Source: Microbotryomycetes sp. JL201 | Taxonomy: Eukaryota; Basidiomycota; Microbotryomycetes | Direction of reading: 5' to 3' | Assembly (NCBI GenBank): GCA_033819885.1 | Contig: JAQYUZ010000016.1 | Coordinates: forward strand, 186,001 to 250,000 | Length of the DNA: 64,000 nt | Part shown: piece after piece, positions 4,655-53,412 of the stretch | Layout of the letters: the number at the start of each line of letters is the position of its first letter | Numbering within the stretch: the stretch's first letter is position 1 | Notes under the pieces: generated by a model | Told to the model about the DNA's origin: nothing | Databases searched by the model: none | What the model saw: the letters and a program-made list of their open reading frames with translations, nothing else | Position numbers and translations under genes: made by a program

Positions 4655-6542
4655 CTAAAACCTAGTCAGATCTCTCCCTGCCAACCACCCCAAGAACCTG
4701 CGGGTGATAAAAAATTCAGATCACTGTTTGTACAGCAGGTCATTGCAGACGACATCACCAACATGACTCACCAATAAAAAGCGAGTGAACACCTATTCCT
4801 CCAACTCATCGTTTGTAACCAATAAGCTGAACGCCACAACAACCAACCGGCCCTACCTCCTTCTTTCGCTCTCGGTCCAGCTCGAGTTCCAGAAGCGTCT
4901 ACGAGTCCTCTCCAATCACCGATATAAGTCATGATTCCTTTGTTGACAAAATTGAATGGACCAGGCGAGGAAGACCAAGATCGAACTTGAGAATTCAAAA
5001 TTTTGGCGAGGTGTTTTGCTTCTTGGTTCGCGACTATTTTTTGTGCATCGAATATTAAGAACCAGTCAGTGTTCGAATTGGGAAATCTCGAACGATTACG
5101 AAAAGGGGAAACAGCTCACCTTGAGCCGTTGCCGGCAACGGATCTCCGTCAACCCTGGCAGCGTCTCCAATAACGTAAACGTCTTTTGCTTTACCGCCCT
5201 TCTCGAGGTATGGAACAAAGTGATCGTCTACCTTGATAGATGAAGTCTTGGCATCGTGCTGCAGCTCTTTCAAGGAGGCCACGAGCGGGTTCGGAGCGAG
5301 GCTGTCATGCGAGAGCAATCATAACGTCAGTGTGCCGATTCCACGGACGTCGACACTATGACGAACCCGGTTGACCAAACGAGGAGTCCGAATGGTACTT
5401 CACCCTCCTCTTTGATGATGATACTCGCCTCGTTGACGCGCTCGACATGTCTCTGATTCTTTATGGTGATGCCTTGGCGAGCAAACTGTTTCATGGCGTA
5501 CTCCACAAGCTCTGCATCAAACGCTCCGAGAATCGTCGGCGCAACATCATAGATGGTGATGCGAGCCATCGGTGCTAATTTCGGATATGCTCGCGTAATA
5601 TCTGTCGCGACGAGGTCGTGCAATTCTGCCGCAAATTCGCAACCTGTAGGACCTCCTCCGACGATCACGAAATTGAGCATCTGGGCTCTTTGAACGTCCG
5701 TCAACGTTGGTTGAGCAGCCAACTCGAAACATTCAAGGATGCGGGCTCGGATCCGTCTCGCGTCCTTGACGTCTTTCAGAAAGTGAGCGTACTCTTTGAC
5801 GCCTGGCGTGTTGAACGTTTGACTGTAAGCACCGACGGCAATGACGAGCTTGTCATACGACAAGTCGAACGGCTTGACTCCGGGATACGAAACTGCAGGA
5901 ACTTGCTGTGTCGAATGCGATGCCTTGTCTACCAAGTCATGCAACTTTTTGCTCGCCGTCGTCGAGCCGATGGCGGGAAGGCATTGGATCGTCTTCTTGT
6001 CGAGGTCAACAGCGTCTGCCCACGCCTGATACGACGTGGTGTTGCGGGCAAACCTTCGAACGGGTTCGAGACATGCTCGAAATTCTATCGTTCCTACCGC
6101 CGCGGAGGCGAGCAGAGGAGTGAACCTGACGTTGATCAACGCATAGCTCGTCAGTCACAAGCTAAGCTGGATGGGCTTTGTCGGCTATGACTTGCGCAAA
6201 GTAGGTGTTTGCCGACACGATCGTCACGTCGTACGCCGATTTATCGACTTTTCTCAGCAGTTCGTAGCCTGCATACATGTTTGATGACCGAGAAGCGTTA
6301 GTTAGCGCCAACTCCGCAGAGATCAGATCGTTCGCTTTTGAAACCGTGCAAGCTCAAGGGAGCCCACCTGCCCAGCCAGACCCCAAAATGACCAGTTTCT
6401 GTCGAGTACGAACGCTGCTCTGTGTAAACGCTCGCGAGTTCGGACCAGGTGATGGTGACGACGAGTTCGGCCTTGCGCGTGAATGACGCAACACGCCGAG
6501 TGCCGGTCGCAACAGTAATGGAGATGGCATAGTAGGTGGCAT
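4655..6542 (-). CDS. NDE1: Rotenone-insensitive (type II) NADH:ubiquinone oxidoreductase
   Basis: 497 aa in six exons: 6368..6542, 6196..6268, 5367..6125, 5120..5301, 4772..5033, 4655..4697. The N-terminus is Ser/Arg-rich, like a mitochondrial presequence. The FAD dinucleotide fold is split by an intron within LVILGSGWAG. The NADH-binding fold is IVGGGPTGCEFAAEL. Later conserved blocks are GLLVWSTG, VYVIGDAA, PFNFVNKGIMTYIGDW and the C-terminal GRDLTRF membrane-anchoring end. No EF-hand insert is seen. The enzyme passes electrons from NADH to ubiquinone at the inner mitochondrial membrane without pumping protons. Whether it is external (NDE) or internal (NDI) cannot be told from sequence. Intron 6126..6195 starts with GC (GCAAGT) and is required to join TYFA to FTPLL. 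The gene converges on the RING/LON gene with a 234-nt spacer. Confidence 0.93.
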
Positions 6543-8090
6543 GCCGAGTCAATGACACCAATAGGTGCCCTTTAGAGCACCGAGAGAGAACGGAGAGAGA
6601 CAGTTGCGCGCTCGCGACTCTGTCCGATCAACCCAGGCGAGTCGCGTGCTGCGGACGATCAGTTACAAGTTGCCGGACAAAGTTGCTGCAGAAGTGCAAA
6701 GGGTCTTTCAGAGCTAGTTGTCGAGCCCACAGGATAAGTCTTTCTCGGTCTCATCATTCTGCGGAAAGTCACGTGCAGCATCCTGCCGGCCTTTGCCGAA
6801 CATTCCTTGTGCCCCAACACCAGGGGTCCCGACCGACTACCGAGCAAAATGCAGTCGAAACACCATGTTGAAGCAAAGTGGGTCCAAGCAGGAGCTGCGA
6901 GAGAAGCAAGACGACACTGGGCCGCCAATAACGAATGGTACTGCATCTGCGTCTGTTTCTCAAGGGCCCAGAGCCGGTGCTGATCGTGCTGGACTTCCCA
7001 GCATGTGAAAAAGTTTCGGTCAGACGATGGTGAATGGCTCGAGACGCTCACCTCGAGCTCGAGTTCTTTCTGCCTTGCTGCCTGCAAGTTCAAATTGTGG
7101 GCGAGTCCGAAATGCTGCTTTTTCGGGGGCCTTACCCGCAATTTTCGGTCGAAAATGAGGTTGCTTGCGTAACCACGAACACGCGAAGCTTGTCAATAAT
7201 GGCGTCCTTTGTCGCAAGCAAGCCTGGGAAAACGCTGTCAGTATAGTCTTGCCCCGCATGGTCTGGATCATCTGTGACCTCACTGCTCCTGCAGCGCTTT
7301 GGCAGAATTGGTTTGCGTCCTCTCAAGGCCTCGAGCTTCGACTTGAGTTCCTTAGTCCGGCTCATCAGTATCTTGATAAACCACGCAGCCGGGTCTCAAT
7401 GCCTTCGAACACATTCACGTCCTCCTGCGTCACATCTAGAGTCCGCATGCGAACGTCAGTTGGGTCCAAACTACGCTCGTGCCACCGTTTTCAGATGCGG
7501 GCCCAAGCCATTCATGAGCCAGAATGGCAGCACAGGCGATCAGTGCGCCTGTAAATACCATGATACCCCGGCAAAGTCATGCCCGGGACACGTCTTGCAC
7601 TAGGGGCAAGGCTCTTCCGACACAAGTGGCGTTCGCGTCTGCGGAGCACAATGTAGCGAACAGACTGCTTACGGCCACGTACCAGGCGATGTCGTTGTGT
7701 TCATCGACTTGTGTTGCGCCCGAGCGGAAATGATGGAGAACGCGAACCTACAAAACCCGGAGGAATCACATCTGCCAGGCGAAAACCCGAGCCGAAACGA
7801 TGTAGCGCAAATGAAAGCGCACGAGAAGCCTGATCGCACAATCAATACGAGAGCAAGATGATTTGAATCTCGTGACGCTTGTGATTCTCGCTGCGCTCGT
7901 AGCTTTGAAATGTCATCCCCTCTGCACAACGGACAAACATTCGAAAGTGAGAATCGTCTTTGTGTGGGAGGCTTGTCTTCCCAATCGTGAGATGAATGAA
8001 CCACTTGATGCGTGAATTTCCTTCCAGCTCGCGATATCGAGAGTGGGAGAATACGAATGCTGATACCTCTGTACACAATCTTGAGAACTT
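6543..8090 (-). other. unresolved stretch with coding-like fragments on the minus strand
   Basis: No gene could be assembled, but several minus-strand pieces look exonic. ATG near 7700 is followed by CCTG|GTACGT. A hydrophobic segment GALIACAAILAHEWLGP lies after a TTTACAG acceptor near 7540. A lysine-rich helix (RTKELKSKLEALRGRK) is read near 7340-7300. A short coiled-coil-like piece (AARQKELELE) precedes a GTGAGC donor near 7053. Good acceptors (TTTTCCCAG, ACTTGCAG) sit between them. This would fit a small multi-exon protein with a transmembrane segment and a coiled coil. I do not recognise it and cannot join the pieces in one frame. The part from about 7740 to 8090 is probably the RhoGAP 3' region and the promoter of this putative gene. 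Confidence 0.3.
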
Positions 8091-10270
8091 CTAACCTCCA
8101 AATAATTTTCGCCTCTCCTCAATACTCAGAAACGACCAACTTTCCGTCTTAGACTCGTCGATCGAGGACACATCCGGCAGCAGAGGAATCGCAGAATGTT
8201 TGACACCCACATCTCCTTCGGAGTTTAGTCTCCGCGAGGCTGTGTCAGGTCCGATGCCGAGACCCTGCAAAGAGTCGACGATGACTTGTTCGTTCGCTCC
8301 GCCATTCGCTCTCAAACGAGGACTAGTCTTTGCACTGCCAGGTGCCCCAGCTCTGTTGACGAACAGAGCATTGGGCTCGGCGGACCTTGAAGGTATGAAA
8401 GGTCTCGCTGAACTGACGTGAGAGGGAGCAGGTAACGTCGGAGATGTCGCAAACGTGCTTGAAAATTTGTCTGCGATCGGAGTCGCAAACGATGCCGCGG
8501 TTGAGGGAGAGGCTGTCGGTTCGGCAGCTGGAACGAGACAGTCTTGGACGTCAAGCTTGCTGTCAGACGTGTCCGGGCTGGATCTTGGTAGTGCTTGATC
8601 GACGTTGTCCATTGAAAGACTGACAAAGCCGGACGAATGCGCCTCGTTTTTGGAACGAAGCATCTCTTCTGCAGGAAGCTTGCGGTCTCTTGCCGCTGAG
8701 TGCACGTCATTTCAGTCCGGATTCTAGCGCATTCCAGGCATTAATCTCACATTGGTTCGGCCCAGAAAACAATTTGTCTCTCTCTTCGACAAGGATGGCC
8801 AAGAAGACGGGCGACAGGCGCAGCGTAGGAGACAAGATCAACCTCAAATTGGCCAATCCCATCTTGTTTGTCGCAGAATACGTCGACAAATTGAATAGAT
8901 GGTAGCTTAGAGCTCTCAGAAGATGAAAGTATTCCGCTTCGAGTTGCTCAGCAAACCACTTTGCGAGTTGCTCGACGTATTCGTCGCAAGCTTTTCCATT
9001 AACGAGTCCGCCCGCTAGAGACGGGCTGCCGACTTTAGATCCTAGGAATTGAGAGACGGACGCGGAGCAGCCGAGAATTTTGAACGAGAACTCGTCGACG
9101 ACGCGCTCCAGCTGCGGTGACAAGAGCGAGTCGGGCACTGCAGAATAGAGTCTCGTCAATAAGAGGAGGTTCGAGGCTGCGAAATCAATACTACTCGCAT
9201 TCTCGCAACCAGGATTTGAACACGGACGCAACGGCATGTGGGTCCAAGTCCCCAGGATGGATCTCGCGCAAGTCAATGTCCATTCCGGCGTCAAACAATT
9301 GTCTCAATTGTGCGACCGAGTTTGCGCGTCCGGGAACGCGATAGATCCCTTCTTCAGCCTTGGCGTTGTGTTCGAGATACTGCAGACATCTCCAAGCGAT
9401 ACGGGGCAACCACCTGGCCGCATCATCTCCTGTTACTGGATTCGAATCTGGTGGTCTGACGACGGAGCTTGCTTTGACAGACGTGTTGGACACGGCCACA
9501 GGAAGCGGCAAACCGAAAACAAGCTGAGGGTTTGTTGCAGGTACTCTGACGCCGAAGACGTTAATGGCCGATTGTCCTTTCGAGCGAGACCTTGCCACGA
9601 AGTCTAGAGAAGACGACGATGACGACGACTTGGTCATTGGCTCGGATGATGGGATTGGAGAAAGTCGGGCAGAGCTGGTCGAAGAGGATGTGGCTTGACT
9701 GACGGCGGCCGATCCTATCTTCCACCCTTCCTGGAGCAAGCCTCGGCCCTTGCCACCCCATTCCTTACCGATCGACACGCCTGTAGCGAACCTGTCTTTG
9801 ATTTTGAGCTGATGATTCGTTTGAGCTAGTCGCGTGCCAAAAGTGGTCGGGATTGAAGTCCTCAATGGTGGTGGCGGAAGAGGTGGAGGCAGGCTGGCCG
9901 CTGGCTCACTCAGAGCTGGCCGAGGTGGCAAATCGGGTCCTCGTCGCTTTGTTTCGGCAGTGAGGACGCTGTGCCGGTCGTCTTTCTCGATGTCGTCCTG
10001 GAACATAAAGTCGAGCCAGGGTGTCGAGCTGCGCGCAGCCGGTGCGCGGTCGACCGTCGGTTTCAAGCTGTTGTGGACGTTGAATGAGTCGATTGAAGTT
10101 GGATGAGATTGTAACGTGACCGGTTTCGATGGGACTGGTGGCGGCAACGACTCGCGCTTGACTGTTGTGACGTCGACCAGGCTGCCGTACGAGTCACTCT
10201 CACGGACTGTGACAGGAAAGGACTGACGCATGCTATCCGTGTCATGTCTGGACCATGTCGTCGTTGCCAT
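8091..10270 (-). CDS. Rho GTPase-activating protein
   Basis: 687 aa in three exons: 9199..10270, 8751..9137, 8091..8695. The first ~270 residues are Ser/Pro-rich with SH3-ligand-like proline runs. A RhoGAP domain follows: LPRIAWRCLQYLEHN, then EEGIYRVPG carrying the arginine finger, then DPHAVASVFKSWLRELPDS. It continues in exon 2 through ATNKMGLANLRLILSPTL, the conserved Lys/Asn-Leu face. The tail is polar and low in complexity. Start ATG 10270 is chosen because the upstream in-frame extension begins only with GTG. Intron 9138..9198 has a GC donor (GCGAGT), needed to make SWLRE run into LPDSLL. The protein should stimulate GTP hydrolysis by Rho/Cdc42-family GTPases at polarity sites. The target GTPase cannot be told. 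Confidence 0.9.
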
Positions 10271-10470
10271 GGCGGTCCGCACCTCCGGGCTCGTGCGCTA
10301 TCGGTGATGAGCTGATGACACCTACTCTGTCGAGTTCGCAGGTCACGAGATATGATATGGAATCTGGCACTAAAAGAGTTCGTTGACTTCGTGTTGGTGC
10401 AATTTGAGCTGGACGCGCGAAAGGAACAGGAGCGGCCCACTGGTTTCGCTCGAACGCGTCGCGGCGCGTC
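10271..10470. promoter_or_regulatory. bidirectional promoter region, RhoGAP / HD hydrolase
   Basis: Two genes start 200 nt apart in opposite directions, so their promoters and 5' UTRs must share or overlap this interval. No clear TATA box is seen. Confidence 0.5.
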
Positions 10471-11332: not shown

Positions 11333-11457
11333 AATAGAGTGAATTGGCATCAGGTTGCGTACTGAGCTCGGATGGCGTTGATAGTATATGTATTGTGGAG
11401 AGCTCGCTTGGCTCATCCCTTTGGCTTGAGCCCTAGCGCTCGCCTGCTCATCTTGCG

Positions 11458-12980: not shown

Positions 12981-15123
12981 ATGGTCGACAAGTATCCACC
13001 GCAAAGATCAACTGAATCCCGTGACGCTGCGCCGGGTGCGAGTGCGAGTGCGAAGAGTGTGCCTGACGAGGAGCAGCAACGCGTGCGCGCAAGTCGTTTG
13101 GAGTATTCGGACGACGAAACCGACGGGGACGAACCTGACGAGTTTGAGGCAGAAATGAGCCTCGCCCAGAGCGCACTCAATGGCGGCAGACGCAACAGAG
13201 GCGCAGACATGGGCTTGCCGACAGACAACAAGTTTGGGATGCACCACGGGACCGGGACCGGCGCGGGCGCGCATCCGCTGCGCGCGTTGACGCCGCGTCG
13301 GATCGCCATCGTCGCCGCGTGCGTACTGACGGCGCTGTTCGTCTTGGGCAAGGCGCCGTCGCCGTCTGCAGTCACTTCAAAGCTGCCGTCCTCGAACAGC
13401 TTGTCAACAGACGTCGCAGGCGAGCGCGTCGACCTCGGCAAACTGCCAGACTCGTCGCCCCAGCATCAGCCCGGCAGCCACTCGTCGCAATGTACACCAC
13501 CACCAGGCCAGAAGCAAACAACGTACGCGCTCATGATCGACGCCGGATCGACAGGCTCGCGCATGCACGTTTACACTTTCAGCCACTGCGACCCGACGCC
13601 GGGCGCGTTGCCCAAACTCGAGCACGAGGGCTTTTTCACAACCAAACCAGGCCTGTCGTCGTACGCCCATAAGCCGAAAGACGCTGCAGAATCACTCAGG
13701 TCCCTCATGGAAGCCGCAGTAAAGGGCGTGCCCAAGGCAGAGCACGCGTGCACGCCCATCGCCGTCAAAGCCACTGCCGGACTGCGCTTGCTCGGTGAAA
13801 AAGAGAGCACTGAAATATTACAAGAGGTGGAACGGTGGCTGAACGACGAGTGGCCGTTCAAGGTCGTCAAGGACGGCGTCGTCATCATGGACGGCAAAGA
13901 CGAAGGCGAGTCGGGCCGCTCGCCACTCGCCCACATTGAAAAACAAGCAAAGCTGACACTGTTCAATTTGTCCTTTTGTACTCTCAGGTGTTTACGCATG
14001 GATCACAATCAATTCGGTAAGCAGCGCACAGCGTCACTCATTCACCAACAAGGCAAAACACGCAAGAAAGGCTGACTATCGAATTTGAGCAGCTTCTCGG
14101 TTTGATTGGACCAGAGGACGCCGATCCGACAGGCACCGCTGCTGTCATGGACCTTGGCGGCGCTTCCACTCAGATCGTCTTCGAGCCAACGTTTGATCCA
14201 AAATCGCCAGCCAAGCTCGCGCCAGGCGACCATGTGTATGACCTCGATTTTGCGGGTAAAGATCACGTCTTGTATCAACATTCTCACCTCGGATATGGTC
14301 TCATGCAAGCAAGGAGGGCCGTCCACAATCTCATTGCGTTCCAGCACGTCTGGTCGTCAGCTCCAAAGGGCAAACCGATCGTGTGGAACGACTTGACAAA
14401 GTCGGACAAGATTCACAACCCTTGCATGTTCAAAGGCGAATCCAAAGTCGTCAAACTCGATCCACCTGGCCGAGAAGAGGTCCAAGTGACAATGGTCGGC
14501 ACCGGCGCTGGGTTTGAAGCTTGCCGACGAGTTGTCGACGTCATGATTGCCAAAGACGCCGCGTGCGAGGAGCCTCCTTGCGCGTTTGCGGGAGTGTACC
14601 AGCCTGCTCTAGGCGAGGTCTTTGCGGCGGGCAAAGTCTGGGCGTAAGTTCTGCCTCTCGTTATGAATTTGGGGACGCTCGATTGATCTTGCTCGGACAG
14701 ATTGTCTTACTTTTACGACCGTATCGCGCCTCTCGGCCTCGAGTCGCCTTTCTCTATCTCGGACTTGCGCCAGCTCACGTCCGACGTCTGCGCTGGTCCG
14801 TCGTCAGCGGCGTGGAGACGGTTCAAGTCGAACAAGATGGCCATGGAAGAATTGTCGGATAGACCAGAGTACTGTCTCGATTTGACATTCATGTACTCTT
14901 TGTTGAGCTTGGGTTACGAGTTGGAGGACGAAAGACAGGTTTGGATCGGTAAAAAAGTTCAAGACGTTGAACTCGGTTGGTCAGTCAAGAGTCGCTTTCT
15001 GAGTTTCGTGCTTATATCTATCTGTTTGAGTACTTGCTGACTTGGTGATTTCAACTGGGATGTAGGGCCCTCGGCGCAGCGCTAGAAATGATTCAAGGGC
15101 ATTTGACTTGCAGAGCAGATTGA
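12981..15123 (+). CDS. GDA1: Golgi guanosine diphosphatase (GDA1/CD39 nucleoside phosphatase)
   Basis: 613 aa in five exons: 12981..13905, 13988..14016, 14093..14643, 14701..14979, 15066..15123. This is a type II membrane protein: cytoplasmic acidic N-terminus, then a transmembrane helix RRIAIVAACVLTALFVLG at ~106-123, then the lumenal enzyme. Apyrase-conserved regions are all present: MIDAGSTGSRMHVY (ACR1), KATAGLRLLG (ACR2), DEGVYAWITIN (ACR3), MDLGGASTQIVF (ACR4) and HSHLGYGLMQARRA. GDP (or UDP) released by Golgi glycosyltransferases is hydrolysed to GMP, which drives nucleotide-sugar import by antiport. Intron 13906..13987 has a GC donor (GCGAGT) and splits ACR3, so it must be spliced for activity. 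Exon 2 is only 29 nt. Confidence 0.95.
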
Positions 15124-15191: not shown

Positions 15192-16898
15192 TCATTCCAA
15201 CCATTCCGGCTTGCTGTCTGCATAAGATTGTGCTGCCCACTCAGGGTCAAGGTCCAAGCCGTTGATTCGAGCTGCATGTCTGACTGTTTCGACCGTCTTG
15301 CCGTCAAACCCGTTTTGGTACGTAAGGGTTTGACCTCGATTGCGCAAGTCTGAAAGCGTTTCGAGTGTGGTGTCAAAAGGAGCTTCTCGAACACGACCGA
15401 GCGATCTCAAAAGGTTCGACATCGAGAGCAGACTAGTCCTGACGATGTATGAACCACCCTCGGACGCCCTTCTTATTAGAGCAGCCTGAATGCCAAACCT
15501 ATGTCACGTTTGATCAGCCCGTAGCCCTATGCCCGACCGACCGAAAATATTTTATAATGGCACTCACGCCAACATGTAACCGGCTCCGTGATCCAAAGCT
15601 TGACAGGGCAAAGGTTTTGGCTCGAAAGTTCCTCCCTTTGCTTGTTGCCAAGATTCGCCTTCGGCTTGATTTATCCCGGTTGCGAATTGTACCAAGGAAT
15701 CAAACCCCTTCTTGTCTTTTAAGGGACCCTGCCTGCCCCAAGCCGTCAAAGATGCGTAAATGCAATCCGGATTCAGGTTCCAAATTTCGTTTGGTCCGTA
15801 ACCTAAACCGTCGAGACCTCCGGGTCTGTAGGATTGTAGGATCACGTCGGCAGATTTGACCAAACCTTCAAAGGTCCGGCGGTCATTTGGGTTTGAGGAA
15901 CGCAAATCAAGCTGGATCGTCCGTTTGCCTCTACTTGTTTCAAAGTCGAGGTCGGGCAAACAAGGCAAATGGGGAGCCGTGACTGACAATCATGCTTCAG
16001 TGAGAGCTTGACAAACCGGGCGAGCAGAGAACTCGTGCGTACCCCACAGCACGTCTGCGCCGTAACCAGCCAAGGTCCTACCTGCTGTCGGTCCAGCAAT
16101 AACTCTGGTCAGGTCAAGAATTCGTATGCCGTCGAGAGGTCGTCTCGTGTTGCGAAAAGTTGGGAAAGATTTTGTCGGTCGTTCGTGGATTCTTTCGATC
16201 GAAATGGGTGGCAAGGTCGCTGAGGCTTTGCCGTGGTCTGTAGCGTCCCTGTCACGAATCGAGGCCGGGCGTCAGTTGAAAAGACTCGAGCGCCTGCTGG
16301 GCCAAAATGCTTGCCACTGCTCAAATGAGCGTAATGCGACGAGGAGAACGTTTTGACTCATCGCTCGGTCTACCGTTTCCCAGGCAAGACAGTCCAAGAA
16401 CCTCTGAGCGAGCTGATCTTTGGAAGTATTTTCAGGCAGGCCGAGCATATCAAGTAAACCCTTTCGGCAGAGTCGAGCTTGTCAAAGTTTGATTCATCTG
16501 ATGCCCCGAATAGCTCTTACGATGCGATGGTGCTTCCAATTGACATGAGGTCTTAGCCATCCGTCCTTGGCCCTGTATTGCCCTGCCAACTTGTCCCAGA
16601 CAGAACCTAATCGACCACCGATCAACGCCAGTCGCTCAACGCGGAACTCTGCCGCAGCGTCCGAGGCCTCAACGGTCACTATTCGTGGCTGACTATCACG
16701 CAGAAGTCTTGAAGTTTGAAGAAGGCTAGCAGAGAGGGCGCAGAGTGCTATCGTTGCTTGTGCGAACGCGGTGGTATCGAACGAACTCGGCATGGCACGT
16801 GCCGGACCACATAGCAGCAACGAGTCGAGTGCGGATGGCGGCAAGCCTGTGTCAATCCATATCCGTGTCACTAGCTCGCGCGCTGCCTTGTGCGTCAT
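15192..16898 (-). CDS. Class III CoA-transferase (CaiB/BaiF family)
   Basis: About 483 aa in five exons: 16521..16898, 16315..16460, 16043..16248, 15568..15982, 15192..15498. Conserved landmarks are [35 protein letters not shown] (across an intron), [29 protein letters not shown] and [14 protein letters not shown]. These are the two-lobed interlocked CoA-transferase family that includes formyl-CoA transferase and alpha-methylacyl-CoA racemase. The fungal branch has an N-terminal regulatory-like lobe, as here. Acceptor and donor acids are unknown. Intron 16249..16314 has a GC donor (GCAAGC), needed to give [14 protein letters not shown] 51-nt stretch in the last exon looks spliceable (GTCAAA...AAACAG) and keeps frame either way. 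The gene converges on GDA1 with only 68 nt between stops. Confidence 0.9.
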
Positions 16899-17137: not shown

Positions 17138-19302
17138 ATGAATGCACTTGATCAAGATCAGGAGCCAGACCAAGCTTGGACTTGGCGCCGGGGTTTGCTT
17201 GATCGAGCGCGAGAGCTTTATCGCCAATCGTTCGTTGGACGACACCAATTGACGTTGCTCGGCCGATGCACGCTGCTCCTCGTCGGAGAATTGGCTGTCA
17301 ACTTGCTGCTGTGGATAGTCGCCTTGGCCATGTTCGCCCCAGACAAGCAGACAAGGTCAGTTGGACTTTATGTGCTCAGCTCAAGTGGGGCACATCTTGC
17401 CTGGCAGTAGACAGCGTTCAGGCGAATCCTTCGCTGAGGTCATAGCACTCGTCCATGACTGCCCGCTGCTGCTACAGTAGGGTCCGGCTGAAGCCTATCA
17501 TCGCATCCTGCAGAGGCGTGCTCAGCTTGTGCTTGATAGCTTGGACACTCGGACTGAGACATGGTCTAGACATGGATCACATCATTGCTATCGATGTCGT
17601 GACACGAAGGCTCGTCTCCATGTCAAAGGAACCCGTCTGCGTCGGTATGATGTCTTTCTCGTCGACAGTCATGAGCGAATTCCGTGACTCACGCCAAATT
17701 ACGCTCCTGCAGGCCTGTTCTTCTCCCTGGGCCATTCGAGTATCGTGCTCGGCGCAACCATCGCAATTGTGGCAGCCGTCTCTGCAATCGACAAGATCCC
17801 AGACGTCTCTGCCGTCGGCGGTGTTATCGGTAAGGCGGCTGGCGAACGCGCGTGTGCAAGAAAGAACGAAAACTTGACTGACTTGACCGCACAATGAAGG
17901 CGTCACAGTTTCAGCAACATTTCTGTTAATTCTCGGTAAGCGTTGCCTCTCATCCATCACCTGTTGTTGCTGATCCCGACTTTATTACGCGTTTCAGCCA
18001 TTCTCAATTCCATCATACTGTTTACTACAGTCAAGGCACATCGAAGAGCGAGTCGGAAATTTGCTCAAGTCTCGGGCTCATTCGGCTGAAACACTGTACT
18101 ACCGCTTGCAGCGGCAACAAAACGAGAATCTCGCAGAAACGATCAGAGTTCTGCCTGCTGACGGACGTGTCGCCCAATGCGATTTCGACGCCAAGGCAGA
18201 TGTTGATGAAAAGAACCTCCAGGTGGGCGACCTTACAACCCACGCCCAACAACAAGACACGCTCGGGTTACAACCGACCACGTGCCTCGCGAGGATTGGT
18301 AGGCCGGTTTTCAAAATGATTGACGCGTCATGGAAGGTGAGCAAATATAATGCGGCTGAAATAGCGATCGCTGAGTACCGCGATTCAGATGTACCCTGTC
18401 GGCGTGCTATTCGGGTGCGTTCGGTTCATCACATTGCTGGTCTTGCTCTCATCAAAATTTTTTGGTGCAGGTTCGGATTCGACACGGCGAGCGAGATGTA
18501 AGCGACTGCATCGCCAGCTGTAAGCAAGCAAAGCGGGCTGACCCGTGTCGGTTCTTTCAGCACTCTCCTTGGCGTTTCTGCGATCGCCAGTAGCCACGCT
18601 ATCCCCCGATCACAAGTTTTGTTGCTGCCTTTCTTATTCACGGCAGGCATGACCTTGGTCGACTCGCTCGACAGTGTATTTATGCTTCATGCCTACATCA
18701 TCCCAGGACAAAATGCAGATGTTGCAAATGCAACCGGCGAATTACGTCGTCGCAAGTGGTGGTCTCGTGTGCGCTTGATCGAGGCCAAGCCGACGAATGT
18801 ACAACAGGACGATGTCGTCGCAACCAAAAAAGCCCTGAATTTGCCCGCCGCCGATCAATCAAAGTTGCTCAAGATCCAGATCGTCCTGACGGCCATGTCG
18901 ATCGTCATTGCTTTCTTGATCTCTTTCGTTCAATTCATGTCTCTTGCTCTCGAAAAGTGCTCGTCGTGTGCAGATGCAGCGGAGAACGATTCTGGACTGT
19001 CTGGGCGGTGGTGGCGATTCTGGGCCGAGATTGGAGACGATTGTGAGTGCGAAAGCTATGAGACCATCATATAGACTTGTCAGGCTCGCTGTGCGCTGAC
19101 TCGACGAGGACAATCCAGCGACGTATATTGGCGCGGGTGTCGTTGCTCTGTTCATAATCGTATTCGGCAGGTCAGTTTGTGTGCTTGCAGGGTTCGTTTG
19201 GTACAAACCTCTGAGCATGCTTTTTGCGCTTTGGCACGCAGCTGGTTCGTCGTGGACCGGTGTAAGAAACGCAAGGCTTTGACGACGACCGAAGAGGCGT
19301 AA
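17138..19302 (+). CDS. NIC1: High-affinity nickel/cobalt transporter (NiCoT family)
   Basis: 481 aa in eleven exons: 17138..17355, 17514..17644, 17713..17829, 17900..17935, 17998..18068, 18112..18336, 18389..18414, 18471..18497, 18561..19042, 19119..19170, 19242..19302. All four NiCoT signatures are present: [13 protein letters not shown] (metal-binding helix), [21 protein letters not shown] and [10 protein letters not shown]. Eight membrane helices are expected. The long cytoplasmic loop (~residues 185-265) is charged and variable. The protein imports Ni2+ (and perhaps Co2+) across the plasma membrane, probably to feed urease. Exons of 26 and 27 nt encode the [10 protein letters not shown] motif. 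The 43-nt intron 18069..18111 is short and its donor is weak, so the loop junction is the least certain. No regulatory site seen. Confidence 0.92.
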
Positions 19303-23319: not shown

Positions 23320-26300
23320 ATGAGCCACAATCCTAAAGCGACACAGCAAGTGTCTGAACATCCCGCAAAGACGGCCGTCACGCACCCGACCGACCCAAAG
23401 TTCAAGCAAGTCGACAGCGAGCGCAAGCTGCGGTTCTACGGCGTTCTGCAGGCTCTACGCGCCGGAAAGTACCCTACAAATGAGCAGGTGAGCCTCTTGC
23501 ACCTTTTGTCTAGTTTTGGGTAGATTCTGTATACAGCATCAGCTCATGTTGATGGAGAAATCGGCGACTGACTTTATCGTGGCGTCATCTCGTTGGCGCT
23601 TCATTCAACCTCTCTAGATCTCCGAGACGCTCGACTACACGATCAACCATTCGCCGATCGAGACTTCAAAATTGTCATCAGAAGGCCAGGCTCTGATTGA
23701 GGACTTCCGGGGTGCGTTGGCCTACATGCCTCGATTTGTCGCAATTCTCTGGCGATTACAGGGACTTCTGACCTATTTGGCTGCATACTGACCCAATCTT
23801 GATTTTGTGATGTACCAGAAATTATCCGCACCGCCAAGCAGATCGTCGAACAAAAGAACGCCGACGAGCTCGTTCAAAACTTCCTATTCCATACGAGGCA
23901 GGTCGACTATGTGAGTTTTCTCTGAGGTCCGTGTCTATTGGGGCTACAAGTCGATTCTAACACGTCTGCTATGAGGATCAGTCAAAGGGCAACCTCAAGG
24001 GCATCACGCCCGGCGTCACCCAGGACGAGCGCGAGCGCGACGCTCAACAGGCTGTAGAGCATTTGCGCACCCTCGGCAAGGTCAGTCTGTCAGGCAGAGA
24101 GGCTGCATCATCAGGGAGTTGACGCTCTCGCTTTCGTAGCTCATCTTCACCAACTCTGAGGCTCGCAAGCTTTTGAAGGACTTTGGCGTGCTTGGCCGCG
24201 ATGTGCTGGCCGATGCCGCCGTGAAAGTTGGCGATGTTGCACGCCCCGGAGAGGACGAGCTCGCTCGTGCAGACGAACCCGCGCCTTCCAACCAATGGGT
24301 CGGCCCGGACGGCCAGGTCCACGACCACACCCAAAAAGTGCCCGACACTGGATTGGCTGAGAAGCGCGCAAAGGCCCAAGAGGCAAAGGAAAAGGCCAAA
24401 GCCGAGCGCGACGACATTGTCAATCAAGCTCAGGGTCACGCTGAGAACGTTGCCAGCGCTGCCGACCAGGGCCAACAAGCTGGCCTTGGCGACTCTGACC
24501 AGGCTCGCGCCGAGAATGCGGCTCAAGCTGGCCAGGATCAAGCTCAGACTGAGGCCGAACAAGCCAAGCAAACCGCCAAGGGCAAGCTCAACCAGCTGAA
24601 GGCCAAGATTCCCCAGGAGCACGTCGACCGCGCCAACGAGCACCTCGATCGCGCCAAGGTAAGTTCCTGTTTGCTCGACGCTATTCAGAGCGAAATTAAC
24701 ATTCACATTCCGCTCACAGGAATATGCCAAGGACAAGTTCCCCGAGGAGCGACGCGATCGCTTCATCTACCGCTTGAAGAAGGTTATTGTCGAGAATCAG
24801 CGCCACCGCGACTACCAAGGCGAGTCACGAAAAATCGTCTTTGTCAGGAAACGCTTGTCTGACCTCTCGGTCCTTCTACAGAAGCCATCGAGTTCTTCCT
24901 TGACCGCGCCGAGAACTATGGCAAAGTTGCCAAGGACACGTCCAACCAGGGCGGCAGCAAGGCGCTCGACGTTCGCAATGACCCTGCTTTCCGCTCGGCT
25001 GAAGACGAACTCCGCACTGTTCTCGAGCGCTTTGCCAACGGCGCTTCGATGCAGCCCATCTTTGACTCTGTCAACCAGCTCTACAAGGACTCGAAGAACG
25101 ACGAAGAGCTCCGCAACTGGTTCTCCCGCCTCGACTCGTACGTGCGCGAGGTTCTGCAGACGCCTGGCTACATCATGAAGGAGCAGTGCGACCGAGACGG
25201 TCGCCAACTGATGGACGACGGCAAGAAGTTCTGGGACGTCAAGAACGGCAAGTACGCTGGCCACAAGGACGACTTCTTCAACTCTGTCCAGACATTCTTC
25301 ACGGCTTATGCCGATGATCCTCTGAACGTTCAGCTTGGCAACAATGTCAAGAAGCTGACGACCGATCTGCTCTACGACTCTGACGGCAAACTCGCCTACA
25401 AGCCGCACCTCGTCGCCGACATCAAGCACCACATCTTGCCTGCGCTCGCTACCAACATTGGCTACGTGCCAATTCCACGCATCGAGTACACTGATGAGCA
25501 AGTGGACTTGGTCATCGAGAACTTGACACTCGAAAGCGCCAATTTGCTGCCGAACGTGATCGAGCTGGAGGCGCGCAACTACTTCAAGCTGTCGCCGTAC
25601 TCGGAGATCAAGGATGTTACAAAGCACTCGTTCTGGATCTCTTTCAGCCAGATCCAGGCCGATCTGCGCGACGTATCGTTCTACGTCAAGCGCAAGAGTG
25701 GCTTCCCCAAATTGACGGACGAGGGTCAGATGGACGTGTTCCTTGGTGGCAAGGGTATCTCTGGCAAGGTTCATCTGGAGAGCACTGGTCGCAAGCACCA
25801 CGTCTTCAACGTCAAGGACGTTTCTGTCAAGCTCGATTCGCTCAAGTTGGCTATCCGAAACAAGAGGCACAACATCTTGGTCGCTCTGTTCAAGCCATTG
25901 GCGACTGGTTTGATCAAGAAAGCCATTGCCAAGGCAATCGAGGGTGCCATTCGCGATGGTTTGCAACAGTTGGACGCCCAGCTGGCCGATATTTCAGAGC
26001 GAGTGGAAGATGCTGAAGATGAGGAGGGAGCCAACAAGTTCAACAAGGTCAAGAAGGCATTTGCCGAGAAGAAGTCCGAGGCTGAGCAGAAGAAGGAGGA
26101 AGTCAAGCGTGAGTTGTTGGCGCTCTCATGTCTTGCCCTTAAGAAATCTCTAGCTGACCGTTTTTTTCCGCACAGCCTCCGGACAATTCCAGATCACAAC
26201 TGATCGCGATTCGCGTCTCGTCAACTGGTCTGGTCCCGACTCGATCGTTGACAAGGCCTCGAACCGTGTCGATGCTGCAAAGGGCGGCGACGGCTGGAAG

Positions 26301-28673: not shown

Positions 28674-29537
28674 ATGATGATGCATCAGCATTCGTCACCC
28701 ATGTCGATCAAGCGCGGTCGCGAAGATGACCATTCATCGCCTACCAAACGCTCGAGGGTACGTGCATACACTCTGCTCTTCCGGGCGCTCTTCCTCGGCT
28801 CGCAATTCCCCGCTCTACAAAAAAACTGACTTGCTTCGCTGACGTGCAGACACATGCCGAATTTGATTTGCAACTGCACGCCGTCATGCCTCAAAGTTCG
28901 ATGACAGACCAGCAGCAACCGTCCCTTTTCGGCCAGCACGCCAGCGCATTTCACTTTCAACAACACCAACAGCAGCAGGCAGCCCCAGGCTACAACCAAG
29001 GTACAGGCATGGACATGACCATGGACGAAGATATGCCGTCATCAGCCGCGTCCGCTCACGCTTCGGCCGCTCATCCTTGGGGTCAGACGCAATGCAAGTC
29101 AATTTTGTCCGGACGTACACATTGTTTCATCGTTTCAAATGCTGACTCGGCTTTGGTGCTTAGTCGGAGCGTACTCGAACGCATCGTCGGTACCTTCATC
29201 CGTGCCAAATACTCCGCTCGACGAAGTTGATTTTCAACTCGAGGACGATGACGACTTGTACGGTGACAACACTTACGCGCGTCCACCTCCTTGCTTTCCG
29301 TCGCCGACCGAGTACAGCCAGACATACACGGACGCGCATGGCGTAACGCGCGTGTTCCCAGCTCCTGGCGCCACCGATTCGATGGACGACCCAAACGCTT
29401 TCGCCCAGTACGCCCTCACTCACGGTCTCAACAAGGCCGGGCAAGGTCCGCAGGGTCAGCAGCAGCAATCTGGTCAGGCTTACGGATGGGACGTACCTGC
29501 GCAATCTTTCGGCTCCATCAATTCGCACATGGCCTGA
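28674..29537 (+). CDS. uncharacterised Gln/His- and Ser/Pro-rich protein
   Basis: About 233 aa. Exons 28674..28757, 28850..29093 (or ..29081), 29164..29537. It starts at three clustered ATGs (MMMHQHSSP) and has a basic patch KRGREDD...PTKRSR that could be a nuclear localisation signal. A Gln/His-rich stretch, an acidic strip (DFQLEDDDDLYGD) and a C-terminal aromatic/Pro segment (PPCFPSPTEYSQTYTDAHG) follow. I do not recognise a family. The composition suggests a small regulatory or adaptor protein. Intron 2 can be read with a GC donor (GCAAGT at 29094) or a weaker GT donor (GTCAGA at 29082); both keep the same phase. Confidence 0.6.
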
Positions 29538-41738: not shown

Positions 41739-43112
41739 TCAGGCGGCAAAGTGAGCCAAAGACGAGTGACTCATGGCGCCATACCCTTTCGATCCGCCCG
41801 ATGCTGTGTCAATTGTCGCAGGCATGATTGGCGGGAACAAGGCTGGCGCCGACGCCAGCAATTCGTCCACGCCACACGACATGAGCGCAAACTCGCCAAA
41901 ATTCGACTCGACCGCGTCCCACGGCGGAGACATTGGGTCCAATGAATGAGTGTAAGAGACTGGCGACATGCCTACAAAAATGGATTGTGGCGGACTGGTT
42001 GGAGTCGGGAGTTCAACGGACTCGGTCGACCTGGACGACTCGCGTCCCGGTATCGGCATGACATCTGGTTTGACGTCAAGAGTTGGGGGTCCCTGCAGGC
42101 TGGGCGGCGTGGGCTGCAGCGGGGGCGACGTGATCGTTCTCATGGGTGCAGTCTCGAGTTCAAGACCCTTCAAGGCCAGATTAATTGGCACGGGCTGCTG
42201 CAGAGTGGTTTGATGCCCTTGTGGTTTAGTAAGCTGTTGTGCAGCCGCTGCGGCGGCAACTATCGGCAAAGGGAGGAATCCGGTTGGCGCAAACATTTCT
42301 GTCGTAGTGGCTACTGCGGCAGCAGCAGCACAAGCAGCGACGGCGGGAGGGACCCGAGCCAACGCGCGAATGTTGGCCAAAGTCACCGGGTCCACATGAC
42401 TCTTGCTGTTGTCTTCAGAAGGTGGCGCCGCAGACAAGGGTTTGACTGTTGGCTCTGGCGCTGCGGACGAGGTGGAATTTTCGGTCTTCACGTCGATCGC
42501 GAAGCTTTCTACGGAGCTCGCATTGCTGCCACGCCTGCTGCTCGCCGAATCATGTTCTGTAATGATAAATCATTGGTCAGCACAAATGTCTCTGCGTCAC
42601 GTTGCAACACGCCACGGAGGCAGACACAATTTTAGCCCCGATGTGGGGGCCGAGCAAGCGCCTCCCGCGGGTGAGGCAAGAACCAAAGTCAAGCACCACA
42701 AGAGACCACCGCGAGCAAGAGCGAAACAAGCTTGAAGAAGCGCAGACGTCCAAGCCAAGAAGCCAACTTGCCTGAAGAGCCAGCGGCATCATCGCTTTTC
42801 GGCTTTGGATCGGCCCACCGGCACATTCCTTTGTCGCCACGTCGGTAGCGAGCTGTTTTTGTGCAGCTCGAGCAAGCCGGCTTGGCGCCATCGCATTTAA
42901 CTCGACGCTCGCGGCAAGCCAGACAAGCGGCCCCTCTGCATGAAGGAAAATTGAAAGTAGTGGGAAATGAGAAATTGAGTGTTAGCCTAATTCTTGAATA
43001 CCAAGCGCACAGGCTGAGTCAGAGTTCACACTCACTTTGCCAATGGATTTGGCGGTTGTCTGATGGTCCTTCCTTTCGAGGTCGAGATACGAGCCTGTTT
43101 GTGCTTGCCCAT
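41739..43112 (-). CDS. Zn(2)-Cys(6) binuclear-cluster transcription factor A
   Basis: 352 aa in three exons: 43036..43112, 42772..42935, 41739..42556. The first exon encodes a basic start (MGKHKQARISTSKGR). The cluster is CLACRERRVKCDG then AKPACSSC and a distal Cys in KGMCRW, i.e. C-x2-C-x6-C-x6-C-x2-C with a longer last gap. No fungal-specific middle homology domain is seen; the rest is Ala/Ser/Pro-rich and acidic near the end, like an activation domain. It is therefore a small DNA-binding regulator of unknown target. Intron 42557..42771 (215 nt) has a GC donor (TCAG|GCAAGT). A related factor lies 1.8 kb upstream in the same orientation. Confidence 0.87.
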
Positions 43113-47723: not shown

Positions 47724-50700
47724 TCATCTGTTGAAGGCCCAACCAATCGTATAAATCGTGCATCCGATGAACTTGACTGCGGCCAGAACAGCGACAGCAT
47801 ACAGCAAAAATGCCATGTACACGTTCACACGCGTGCTCGTGACATTGTCGCCCGCAGAAGTGGACAGAATTACAGCCGCCAACGCGCCGTTTGCCAAAGT
47901 CCAAGCCAGCACGACATTCGTTCGCAAATTCGCGTCCGAGTCCTTCGCACGAGTCTGCGCATCAATGCTCTTTGTGACCTTGGGTGGTTTATTTGCCAAG
48001 ACATGGATTGCGTCCTGAGAACCGAAAAGAAAACCGTGAGCTCCGCCCGCCTCGTCTTAGGGATCATTCATGGAATGACTGACATCGTACGCAGCGTTTA
48101 TGTCTTTCTCGTCTTCTGGGAGAGACACATCAACTTGTCCGTCTTTGACTGGCGCGACACCGAGGTCGGTCGAAACCTTTTCCTCCGGTCGGTTTCTGCA
48201 CGCGTCAGAAAAATCAGCACGCGCCGCGTTCTGTCCTCGAACGCAATTAGATGACGCACCCCCATGTAACCTGCATACGAACCCAGAGTTAGCGGCAAAT
48301 TCCGGCAACTGGCCGCGTTCTGTCAGACTCACGTCGTGCAGATTGCAAAACGCGTAAATGTTGATGATGTTGATGTAAGCCGGCGCCAGCAACAGATATT
48401 GTAGGAATGAAGTGAACATATGTGCCGGCTGGAGGCCGACATGTCAGCGCTTGTCAATGACGTCCATACGTGAATTCAAAACTCGCATCGAGGAAGATGA
48501 CTGAAGCGAGCAGCCACAAGCCATAGGTCGACAACAAAGAAATAACGATGTTTCTGAACATAGAAGCATGGTTGGTCTCAAATACTCGTGCATCCGACCA
48601 GAAAGCCATGTTTTGGTGCTCACCTGAACGTGGCATTTGTGAAAATATCACTCAATGAGAATCCGTCAGATGATGCGTCCCGAGCATTTTCGACGCCTTT
48701 GACCGTGATCATGACGGCGCAGACCATCATGTAAACCGTGATGCAGGCGAAAATCGTGGCAATCGTATTGTACCATACTTTCGCGCCGGCCGGCCGGTTG
48801 CCCAAAGCGAGCAGGTAGCACGAAATGATGCACGCCACGTAGACGTATTTGACGACCAGGTTAAAGTACTTGATGCCTTCGATTCCAAAAGACGGATCGG
48901 CTCTGACCGAAAGCGCAGTCTCAGTCAGGCACACACGTTTTCGTGGGTAAATGTGTTGCATGAAGGCTCACAGTGACTGCGTAAGGATGACCCTTGCGCC
49001 GGAAACTTATTCATTAGCCCGGTATCGACATTCATGGATTCGTCGAATAACTCACATGATGATGCCCCAATTGGCAACGCCAAAGAAAGCAAATCTTCGT
49101 GATCCGAATATGGTCAATCTCCAATCCGGTCTTTATGTGATAGGGCGGGCTAGAAACTCACAGGGTGTTGAAAGATTGGTAAATCAGCTCCATATGCAGC
49201 CAAAACTTGCGCCAGAACGAGTGGTCGGACCGGTATAGGTAGCCAAAGTGGAACGTTGCATGGAGACTGGCAAAGAACGAGCCATTGAGCCAGCGGCGGC
49301 GCTGGGTGATCAAGTCCGTCAAGCTCTCTTGCACGTCCTGTGTAAAGGAGAGAAAGTAAGCTCTGAATGTTGCGGGATCAGCCACGAGAGGCGTGACGTA
49401 CTGTGACTGCATATGCCGACCGCTGATAACTCAAGACCCAAGCCGAGCCTCGCTTGGCAACCAGCTCCCAGCATAAGATGCGATCCTCCTGCGGTCCCAT
49501 CACACTTTAGTGGAGTATATTGACGGGCATGAGAGACAGCTAACCGCCAAATACATGTTGCGCGTCCACAAGTCGCTGCGCGTACGCTAGTCAGCCTCTC
49601 CGCCTCATCCGCCCTTGCAACGGCCTCGCACTTACGAATCTGGGTCATGGTCCAACGTTTCGCCCTTGAAGTACTCCTTCAATGGCCCTTCGCCGTTGCT
49701 GTTGTTCTGGATTGCAATGTACCTATAGGCCGAGAACGCACCAGGCAACACGGTGATGTAACCCATCGTCGACTCGAGCGGCTTGTCCAAGATGTCTTTG
49801 CGTCCCAAGTCAGCGAAATGGAATTACAGAATGCGAGGTTCGAGCGTACTTGACATCTTGTACTCAAAGTTCTGAGCGGCGACGATTGGATTGAGCCTTC
49901 GGTCGAGCTCATGTCAGCTCCCCAGCGTACACAAAGCCAAGCAGACATACAGATTTCTAAAATACTTGCCCTTGAGCGCTACGATCTCGCCGCATGCGCC
50001 GCCAACGTTCGAGTTGAGGTCAAACGTCTTCCACAGCTTGTAGATACTCCTCGGACCCGGTTGCGTGCCGACATCGAGCAACACACAGACATTCGGTTGC
50101 AGGATCGGCGCGAATGCGTTGAAAAACCACCGATGAGAGTTGATCTTTTTCGCATTCTTTTCCTTCAGGCAGAACAAAATTTGAACGGGTACGAGCCCAC
50201 GTTCGGCCGATTTGAAAGACAAATTGCCATCCGCGTTAGCAGAGACCGATATTTGTGATGTGTATTCGTAGATGTGCGCCGTGACGGGCTTGTCGGCGAC
50301 GACATTCTTGGCCACGCCGTCTTGGTAGACGCCCATGGCGGCAAGCACCGAGAGCGTGCGCGAATTGATCTTGGCCCGACCATCAGACACAATGCAGACG
50401 ACGACTGCCGCTACGCCGTCAGCACGAGCTCATGATTACATCAGTCAGCGCTCACCTTTTTTCCACCCATCAACACCCCAGGTTTTGGATCGAGTTCGCT
50501 CGCACAAGTGTTGAATGTTTTCTGCAGGACAAGGTTTTCAGTCGAGACTGGCGTGGGTACAGCGCAGTCAGACCGACTCATGACACCGTGCATAGTCCGA
50601 CAGAAAAGTACCTCGTCCTCCTGCACTCGGTAGTGTGCGTGTCAGACTCAACGAGTGGTATGCTTTGGGCCAGCGCCACATACGTTGTACATTGTCATGA

Positions 50701-52240: not shown

Positions 52241-53412
52241 ATGACCACCGATGTCGACGCCGGGCCGGCACCAGCGTCGCGTCCGCGGTCGTCTTCCCTG
52301 TCAAGGTCACGCCCTACGACTCCGCTGCGCCGAATCAGCGCGTCTTCGTTGCGCTCGCTGTCGTTGTCGCACTCGCGTTCACGCGCAACACAGAGCACAC
52401 ACGAGCCACCGCTGCAACACTTGTCTCAACTGTTTGCAGAACTCGCAGACTCGATGTCGGACTTGACCGTCAAGCTCGAAGACTTGGCCCAGATCAACAA
52501 CGACTTGGACGGGTTCAACCAGGCGTTTGCGAGCTACCTGTACGGCTTGCGCATCAACGCTTACACGGCAGACTTTCTCGAGGCGAGTCGTCACAGCTTG
52601 CGTTCTTTGTACGCGTCGTAATTGACCCTGTGCCACACAGGCACCGACAAAGCTCAACTTTGAACTCGCCGCCCAGAGACAACCGCCGTCGCCTCAATTC
52701 GCGCCGGTGCATGATGATATGCACCATCAGAATCAGGACAGCAGTCCACCGGGCTCGCCGTCTGCGTCAATGGCGCCCAACATGACGATGGATTCAGAGC
52801 ACAGTTTCGCACCGGCCATGCTGCCAACTTCTCGCGGCGGTGGCAACGTGGGCGCACGAGGCAGAGGCAGAGGTAGAGGAGGTAAAGCCGGCACAGTCAT
52901 GACCAAAAAGATGAAGGACGAACTGGCTGTGCGTACCGATGGCGTGCTCCCTTTACCCTTGTCTCTGATGCTGATATGGCTGAAACTCGCTCGTTCTAGG
53001 CATTTTCGGACTCGATCGTTCAGCTCATGCCCATCAAGTTCAGGGAGGATCCCGAACGCAGGGCAGAAGTGGAAAAAGTCGTCAGCGTCTTGCGCAGGAA
53101 CCCTGGTGGATTATGCAGTTCGTCACGACGTGCTTCTAGCGGCTGGACCGGAACTTTTCAGCTAACTCGGGCTTGGACAGTGTCTGATTTTGGCAACGAG
53201 GTCCGATTGCCCACTCATAGGATCAACGACTCGTTGACGGCTCTCGTTCGAGCCAAGGTTGTTCTCAAAATTTTTGCAGGTGTAAGCTCTCGATCCATAT
53301 CTCAAAACCAATTTAAAGTTCCGTTAAACTGGATGAGCGCTGATTTGCTACTTGGCAGGGTATCACAACGTATCGCTTCGATCCGACACGCGTTTCGCCA
53401 CCGACGTTCTAG
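52241..53412 (+). CDS. DAM1: DASH/Dam1 complex subunit Dam1 with extended C-terminus
   Basis: 300 aa in five exons: 52241..52582, 52641..52928, 53000..53117, 53181..53281, 53359..53412. After a Ser/Arg-rich start comes the Dam1 core: LSQLFAELADSMSDLTVKLE, then FNQAFASYLYGLRINAYTA and FLEAPTKLNF. Dam1 is the kinetochore-facing subunit of the ring that couples chromosomes to microtubules. The 52583..52640 intron has a GC donor (GAG|GCGAGT) inside the conserved FLEAP motif. A linker rich in Gly/Arg (RGRGRGRG) leads to ~70 C-terminal residues (EVEKVVSVLRRNPGGL, LPTHRINDSLTALVRAKVV, ITTYRFDP) that look like a small winged helix. These last three exons rest on splice signals and pattern, not on a known Dam1 motif. 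Confidence 0.85.

What the first reader, a model, noticed from the sequence alone, without database searches (positions are those of the whole stretch)
6126..52640. About 7 percent of introns use a GC donor
Eight introns in eight unrelated genes start GC-A/G-AG-T/C: 6126-6195 (NDE, GCAAGT), 9138-9198 (RhoGAP, GCGAGT), 13906-13987 (GDA1, GCGAGT), 16249-16314 (CoA-transferase, GCAAGC), 24820-24881 (HAM1-like, GCGAGT), 42557-42771 (Zn2Cys6 A, GCAAGT), 48429-48486 (chitin synthase, GCGAGT) and 52583-52640 (DAM1, GCGAGT). Most junctions restore a conserved motif, for example DEGVYAWITIN or SWLRELPDS, and no GT donor in the right phase does so. I resolved about 115 introns, so the rate is far above the roughly 1 percent usually quoted for eukaryotes. 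All keep a strong A/G-AG-T/C at donor positions 3-6, which suggests U1 pairing compensates. The genome may have relaxed its +2 requirement.
Basis: partly seen in the sequence, partly recalled or inferred. Interest (0 to 1): 0.75.

Follow-up and report, generated by a model that had tools for sequence, protein, structure and literature searches.

The report
Unusually many GC-donor introns, one fungus
In this unnamed, probably fungal genome about one predicted intron in sixteen starts with GC instead of GT, several times the usual share, and most of these keep an otherwise strong splice signal, which makes the genome a good place to ask what lets a cell tolerate that change.

Summary
All eight introns carry GCRAGY...AG at the stated coordinates. 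A homology-free intron caller that I wrote recovers 8 of 8 exactly when GC donors get 5% weight and 7 of 8 at 1%. Six of the eight are also backed by protein homology across the junction. The CoA-transferase junction rests on the model; the Zn2Cys6 one is weak, with an in-frame GT rival.

In 254 kb (window plus 19 stretches) GC donors are 31 of 509 introns, 6.1% (CI 4.2-8.5); outside the window 22 of 396, 5.6%. Strong RAGY-context calls number 25 for GC and at most 2 for each of 14 other dinucleotides. Published rates seen: fungal mean 1.0%, Ganoderma 1.85%, Phycomyces 3.2%.

"Relaxed +2" is only partly right. GC is concentrated where donor flanks pair well with U1: 20 of 56 introns with at least 6 of 7 flank matches, 23 of 455 below. 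The U1 found (a below-cut-off match with an ordinary 5' end), the U6 box, one U5 loop, the U1-C finger and Prp8 domain IV look ordinary. The likeliest mechanism is the standard spliceosome, with strong flanks buffering the +2 mismatch. Splicing is inferred; there are no RNA data.

The parts
6126..6195 (-). GC-AG intron, type II NADH dehydrogenase-like gene
   Evidence: GCAAGT..AG; log-odds 3.9 at 5% GC weight; GC reading aligns without a gap across the junction to the Ndi1-type chain 4g9k; no Pfam family
9138..9198 (-). GC-AG intron, RhoGAP gene
   Evidence: GCGAGT; log-odds 6.2; Pfam RhoGAP 72.4 bits with GC against 40.0 for the best model without that donor
13906..13987 (+). GC-AG intron, GDA1/CD39 nucleoside phosphatase gene
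   Evidence: GCGAGT; log-odds 3.9; GDA1_CD39 188.1 against 117 bits
16249..16314 (-). GC-AG intron, CoA-transferase III gene; rival GT donor 3 nt upstream changes one codon
   Evidence: GCAAGC; log-odds 5.7; junction outside the matched domain, 35.5 against 35.3 bits, not covered
24820..24881 (+). GC-AG intron, HAM1-like gene
   Evidence: GCGAGT; log-odds 8.3; HAM1_N 198.5 against 180.7 bits, the next-best model also using a GC donor
42557..42771 (-). Candidate GC-AG intron, Zn2Cys6 gene A; in-frame GT rival 42557-42747
   Evidence: GCAAGT; log-odds 1.3, lost at 1% GC weight; not tested by homology
48429..48486 (-). GC-AG intron, chitin synthase gene
   Evidence: GCGAGT; log-odds 5.6; no gap at the junction against chitin synthase chains 7stl and 7xs6; Pfam 15.2 bits (below its cut-off of 27) against none
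52583..52640 (+). GC-AG intron, DASH complex DAM1 gene
   Evidence: GCGAGT; log-odds 11.0; DASH_Dam1 73.7 against 63.6 bits, next-best model also GC
18048..18111 (+).
   Evidence: GCGAGT; log-odds 3.3; no homology test; the neighbouring structure is uncertain
29094..29163 (+). Weak further candidate GC-AG intron
   Evidence: GCAAGT; log-odds 0.7 with a GT rival 12 nt upstream

Best explanation
These are ordinary major-spliceosome introns whose donor +2 position carries C. In this fungus about 5-7% of introns do so. The +2C costs one U1 base pair (C against U1 A7), and it persists where the other donor bases (-2A, -1G, +3A/G, +4A, +5G, +6T) pair well enough with U1, and presumably with the U5 loop and the U6 ACAGAG box, to carry the site. 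In such strong sites +2 U and C seem close to interchangeable, so drift supplies many GC donors. Shown here by computation: positions, context, share, dependence on flank pairing, ordinary look of the snRNA and protein parts examined. Inferred: that the introns are spliced as predicted, and that near-neutral drift rather than selection sets the share.
For: GC alone of 15 non-GT donors stands clear of the others. Share 31/509, and 22/396 outside the window. Of 33 GC-RAGY junctions, 24 were tested with Pfam: 17 score higher with the GC reading, 4 tie, 1 has no family, 2 are not comparable. Six junctions were given to PDB searches: 5 fall inside a match and have no gap there (NDE, chitin synthase, two in aspartate aminotransferase, isovaleryl-CoA dehydrogenase), the sixth was not covered. 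GC share by U1-flank matches: 3/33, 2/110, 10/197, 8/115, 15/50, 5/6 for 2 to 7 matches. Predicted U1 duplex energy: 33 GC-RAGY sites mean -4.7, 468 GT sites -6.0, the GC sites read as +2U -9.0 kcal/mol. GT sites with 6 or more matches are fewer than column shuffling expects (36 against 49, P 0.0065); adding GC sites removes the deficit (56 against 61, P 0.20). U1 5' end AUACUUACCUU; no second copy. Branch motif CTNAY, not in the model: 79% of GC-RAGY, 69% of GT, 18% of random 64-mers, but see against.
Against: No RNA evidence. The caller starts from a hand-set RAGT donor matrix and favours such contexts, so weak-context GC introns may be missed and the low share there is partly detection. The count runs from 22 to 43 in about 510 introns with the weights chosen; with all donors competing at 1% the caller finds 4 of the 8 listed introns. 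The branch motif discriminates poorly: 111 of 194 decoy-donor calls (57%) have it too, and 66 of the 194 share an acceptor with a GT intron (25 of 43 for GC). At least one GC call is false (L003:1599 in the U1-C gene). In the strongest class GC exceeds GT (5 of 6; AG|GYAAGT 7 to 3), above the drift expectation of about 0.52 C (intron interiors), but n is small. The U1 match is below Rfam's cut-off (31.1 against 69.5 bits). No fungal genome could be run through the same caller.
Confidence: 0.7

Rival explanations
1. Selection, not mere tolerance: a fully U1-complementary donor is over-stable and slows U1 release, so in strong-flank sites +2C is favoured because it brings the duplex back to ordinary strength.
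For: GC sites land in the GT energy range and would be among the strongest if +2U. Only 1 GT site has all 7 flank matches where 6.2 are expected, while 5 GC sites do. In yeast, E-complex proteins prevent U1 accumulation on hyperstabilised donors (PMC5779234, abstract passage).
Against: Few sites in the top class (6). The same pattern follows from tolerance plus drift. The yeast paper shows that the effect of hyperstabilisation on wild-type U1 is largely masked by other factors (passages). The direction of change is unknown without relatives.
Confidence: 0.2
2. A changed trans factor (variant U1, U1-C, Prp8, LUC7 or U6) actively accepts +2C.
For: The share is several times the published fungal mean, so something may differ in trans. 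One LUC7 gene was found, matching yeast Luc7.
Against: U1 A7 unchanged and no second copy of that U1. U6 ACAGAG box ordinary; U5 loop ordinary in the one of three copies read. U1-C finger and part of Prp8 domain IV close to solved relatives. METTL16-family and SNRNP27 matches present. GC stays rare in weak-flank sites. Rest of Prp8, Prp28, Hub1 and SF3B not examined.
Confidence: 0.12
3. Much of the excess is a gene-model artefact: GC calls stand in for missed GT donors, sequencing errors or alternative frames.
For: One false GC call known; 10 of 43 GC calls at 5% weight lack RAGY and look like noise; 2 of the 8 listed sites have in-frame GT rivals; decoy donors also give 7-25 calls each at 5% weight.
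Against: In RAGY context with log-odds over 3, GC 25 against 0-2 for each decoy; Pfam favours the GC reading in 17 of 24 tested junctions; PDB alignments without a gap at 5 of 6.
Confidence: 0.08

Closest known systems
U2-type GC-AG introns of fungi, animals and plants (fungal mean 1.009%, PMC7072748 Table 1, seen as a passage)
   Same: GC donor, AG acceptor, otherwise strong donor consensus; human GC sites also have consensus G at -1 and +5 (PMC11732430, section headed 12, read)
   Different: Share about six times the fungal mean; about a third of strong-flank donors are GC
Fungi and algae with raised GC-AG share: Phycomyces blakesleeanus 446 of 13950 (3.2%), Chlamydomonas 532 of 25585 (2.1%) (PMC2846911 Table 2, section read); Ganoderma lingzhi 1.85% (PMC11590231, passages); 11 GC-AG introns in 10 of 75 Ganoderma MYB genes (PMC7407476, passages)
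   Same: GC-AG is the main non-canonical class
   Different: 31/509 exceeds even 3.2% (binomial P 6e-4). The Phycomyces and Chlamydomonas rates are EST-based, Ganoderma's curated; this one is computed
GA-AG rich animals Oikopleura dioica and Eurytemora affinis (PMC7072748, passages)
   Same: A lineage-specific rise of one donor dinucleotide
   Different: There the change is GA; here GA stays at noise level (14 calls, 0 strong in RAGY context)

Membership tests
U2-type GC-AG introns | GC at donor +1,+2 and AG at the 3' end | tested here: met
U2-type GC-AG introns | Strong remaining donor consensus (G at -1 and +5, RAGT) | tested here: met
   33 GC-RAGY introns: -1G 61%, -2A 67%, +6T 91%; GT introns 49%, 40%, 60%. 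RAGY was the selection rule for +3 to +6, so only -2, -1 and T over C at +6 are independent of it, and the caller's matrix also favours -1G
U2-type GC-AG introns | U2-type branch point and intron length as in GT-AG introns | tested here: inconclusive
   CTNAY 79% against 69%, median length 66 against 64; but decoy donors also show CTNAY in 111 of 194 calls, and length is in the model
U2-type GC-AG introns | Removed in the cell with exact ligation | not testable with these tools
   No RNA data held; only protein homology across junctions
Introns read by a variant U1 snRNA | A U1 gene with a base pairing with +2C | tested here: not met
   One U1 match with ordinary AUACUUACCU, no second copy by its own sequence at E up to 10; a diverged copy, or one in a withheld or missing stretch, is not excluded

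The most novel reading that the evidence does not exclude
In this fungus +2C is preferred, not merely tolerated, in donors that otherwise match U1 fully: +2 acts as a tuning base that keeps U1 pairing in a narrow energy range, so GT is depleted and GC takes over at the strong end.
Probability: 0.2. Interest if true: 0.7.

Novelty: new variant of a known kind. Interest (0 to 1): 0.5.

Why it matters
If the models are right, gene finders that allow GT only will break roughly one gene in four here (29 of 122 predicted genes, some cut by stretch ends, hold a GC intron at 1% weight). More broadly, the steep rise of GC share with flank pairing gives a natural measure of how much U1 pairing is needed to make +2 free to vary, and of whether too much pairing is harmful, in a genome whose U1 looks ordinary.

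Tried and rejected
Variant U1: not seen. The consensus 11-mer ATACTTACCTG occurs at two other places, no more than its reversed control; neither was reported as U1. Changed U1-C finger, U5 loop (one copy), U6 box, Prp8 domain IV: no change seen. Loss of METTL16 or SNRNP27, the factors tied to donor evolution in PMC10581693 (start of abstract, one passage): matches found, although the METTL16 Pfam family also includes bacterial enzymes (it passed its cut-off in 4 of 14 control genomes). General splice-site laxity: no other donor rises in strong context and no acceptor stands out (highest acceptor TG, 24 of 520). First-intron bias: 28% of 43 GC against 21% of 468 GT introns are first, not pursued. 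Naming the species: not possible with the collections held; that it is a fungus rests on gene content (DASH Dam1, Ndi1-type dehydrogenase, chitin synthase), and basidiomycete is a guess.

Literature: ten answered searches (one search listed 30 of 46 papers). In the listings and passages seen, no fungus was reported at 6%. The per-species supplementary tables of PMC7072748 were not seen, so I do not claim a record. Also seen as passages: PMC3488318, PMC5832005, PMC5100859, PMC13149111, PMC7789003.

I lowered the main confidence from 0.72 to 0.70 and raised the artefact rival from 0.06 to 0.08 for this.
Full report
Check of the observation. The eight intervals carry GCRAGY at one end and AG at the other on the strand of their gene. 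The window is contig C8:186001-250000 of a 17.15 Mb genome in 92 contigs. I wrote a semi-Markov gene model with a coding model trained on long frames, a donor matrix started by hand as RAGT and re-estimated on GT introns only, an acceptor matrix and a length distribution; it used no homology and no branch point. It was trained and run on the window plus 19 stretches of 10 kb from 19 contigs, one of them the window's own contig (a twentieth stretch, L019, was all N and is in no count). With GT and GC allowed it found 8 of the 8 introns with exact borders at 5% GC weight and 7 at 1% (42557 lost); with all 15 non-GT donors at 1% each it found 4 (6126, 9138, 13906 and 42557 lost).

More than chance. 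With the same 1% weight for each non-GT donor, the model called 465 GT, 22 GC and at most 4 of any other in 510 introns. With 5% for one dinucleotide at a time, GC gave 43 calls, 33 in RAGY context, 26 over 3 nats and 25 both; the other 14 dinucleotides gave 7-25 calls, 0-6 in RAGY, 1-7 over 3 nats and 0-2 both. The branch motif CTNAY, not part of the model, is in 79% of GC-RAGY introns, 69% of GT introns and 18% of random 64-mers, but it is weak evidence: 111 of 194 decoy-donor calls have it, and 66 of these 194 share an acceptor with a GT intron (25 of 43 for GC). No acceptor dinucleotide stood out in a like test (4-24 calls).

Rate. With only GT and GC allowed: 31 of 509 (6.1%, 95% interval 4.2-8.5) at 1% weight, 27 of them RAGY, and 43 of 511 (8.4%, 6.2-11.2) at 5%; the strict count is 25 of 511 (4.9%, 3.2-7.1). 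In 12 further loci 4 of 64 calls were GC, at least one of them false (in the U1-C gene the reading that matches U1-C uses GTCAGT). I take 5-7% as the estimate.

Homology. Of the 33 GC-RAGY junctions I gave 24 to Pfam as fragments of at most 180 residues, with the best model lacking that donor as rival; 9 were left out for want of an evident domain or for weak models. The GC reading scored higher in 17: RhoGAP 72.4/40.0, GDA1 188.1/117, HAM1_N 198.5/180.7, DAM1 73.7/63.6, chitin synthase 15.2/none, aminotransferase 172.8/163 and 134.6/126.5, Sel1 85.8/76.9, phosphatase 101.6/98.7, PITH 68.6/55.5, RRM 104/94.1, PPTA 69.7/63, acyl-CoA dehydrogenase 143.5/117, HK 156.6/151, amidase 88.1/72.6, PRMT5 145.8/106.6, Rad51 56/46.5. 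Four tied (CoA-transferase, Yippee, SET, one SMC5 junction). NDE matched no family. Two were not comparable: in TIP49 the fragments cover different parts and the rival scores higher, 147.8 to 132.3; the other SMC5 junction is mixed (SMC_N 39.7 against 31.8, AAA_23 42.1 against 48.2). Fragment edges differ a little between readings, so gaps of a few bits are weak evidence, and some rivals themselves use another GC donor (24820, 52583 and some others). Of 6 junctions given to PDB searches, 5 lie inside a match and have no gap there: NDE, chitin synthase, both aminotransferase junctions and isovaleryl-CoA dehydrogenase; the CoA-transferase junction lies outside its match.

What it depends on. Counting seven flank positions that can pair with this genome's U1 (-3R, since U1 has U at position 11; -2A; -1G; +3A; +4A; +5G; +6T), GC share is 3/33, 2/110, 10/197, 8/115, 15/50 and 5/6 for 2 to 7 matches. 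At 6 or more it is 20/56 against 23/455 below (Fisher p 3e-10), or 17/53 at 1% weight. GYAAGT is GC in 19 of 47; GYCAGT in 0 of 62. The low share in weak contexts is partly detection; the high share in strong contexts is not, because strong GT sites are the easiest to find. Predicted U1 duplex energies average -6.0 for GT sites, -4.7 for the 33 GC-RAGY sites and -9.0 for these read as +2U. GT sites with 6 or more matches are under-represented (36 against 49 in column shuffles, P 0.0065), and counting GC sites with them removes the deficit (56 against 61, P 0.20). So strong sites exist at about the expected number, and about a third of them carry C. Intron interiors have C 0.28, T 0.26, so a +2 free to drift would be about half C.

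Machinery. One U1 match, covering the whole model but below Rfam's cut-off (31.1 against 69.5 bits; the same search also gives below-cut-off matches in 9 of 14 bacterial and archaeal control genomes), with 5' end AUACUUACCUUG, so ordinary A7 and C8. Its sequence finds no second copy. U6 is over its cut-off and has the ordinary ACAGAG box. U5 has three matches over the cut-off; the one alignment that I saw has the ordinary loop. The U1-C finger and a 196-residue part of Prp8 are close to solved relatives, for Prp8 the human chain. Matches to the METTL16 and SNRNP27 families are present, the first of these a family that bacteria also have, and one LUC7 gene. I did not examine the rest of Prp8, Prp28, Hub1 or SF3B.

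Interpretation. As put in PMC11732430 (section headed 12, read), human GC sites are 0.87%, have G at -1 and +5, and cooperation of U5 and U6 pairing may offset +2C. The same logic fits here at a much higher rate. I favour tolerance plus drift in strong sites; selection against over-stable U1 pairing is a live rival, supported in spirit by yeast work on hyperstabilised donors (PMC5779234, passages) and by the 5:1 and 7:3 GC:GT counts in the strongest classes, which are small.

Known or new. GC-AG introns are known. Rates that I saw: fungal mean 1.009% (PMC7072748), 0.02-2.97% in fungal pathogens (PMC6176087), Ganoderma lingzhi 1.85%, Phycomyces 3.2% and Chlamydomonas 2.1% (PMC2846911). This genome lies above these (P 6e-4 against 3.2%), but its rate is computed and theirs rest on transcripts, annotation or curation.

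Noticed in passing
L027:1548-1614 (G000 C63, about 52526-52592): The U6 snRNA gene holds one mRNA-type intron, GTAAGA..TAG, 67 nt, directly after ACAGAGAA; without it the U6 core reads as the Rfam consensus. U6 introns are known in some fungi (recalled).
   Followed up: partly
254 kb sample: C at donor +3 in 22% of 468 GT introns; GTCAGT is the second commonest donor hexamer (62) although +3C cannot pair with U1, and no GCCAGT donor was called.
   Followed up: partly
L002:1501-1678: U1 position 11 is U where the Rfam consensus has G, which changes its pairing partner at exon -3; the U1 match as a whole is below Rfam's cut-off.
   Followed up: no
L019 (G000 C13:50001-60000): The whole 10 kb stretch is withheld and reads N.
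   Followed up: no
window 17848-17914 and 18048-18111: Two adjacent candidate GC introns in one gene; the first has the poor context GCGCGT and the gene structure there is uncertain.
   Followed up: no
L035, L036, L037: Three U5 snRNA matches against one each of U1 and U6.
   Followed up: no
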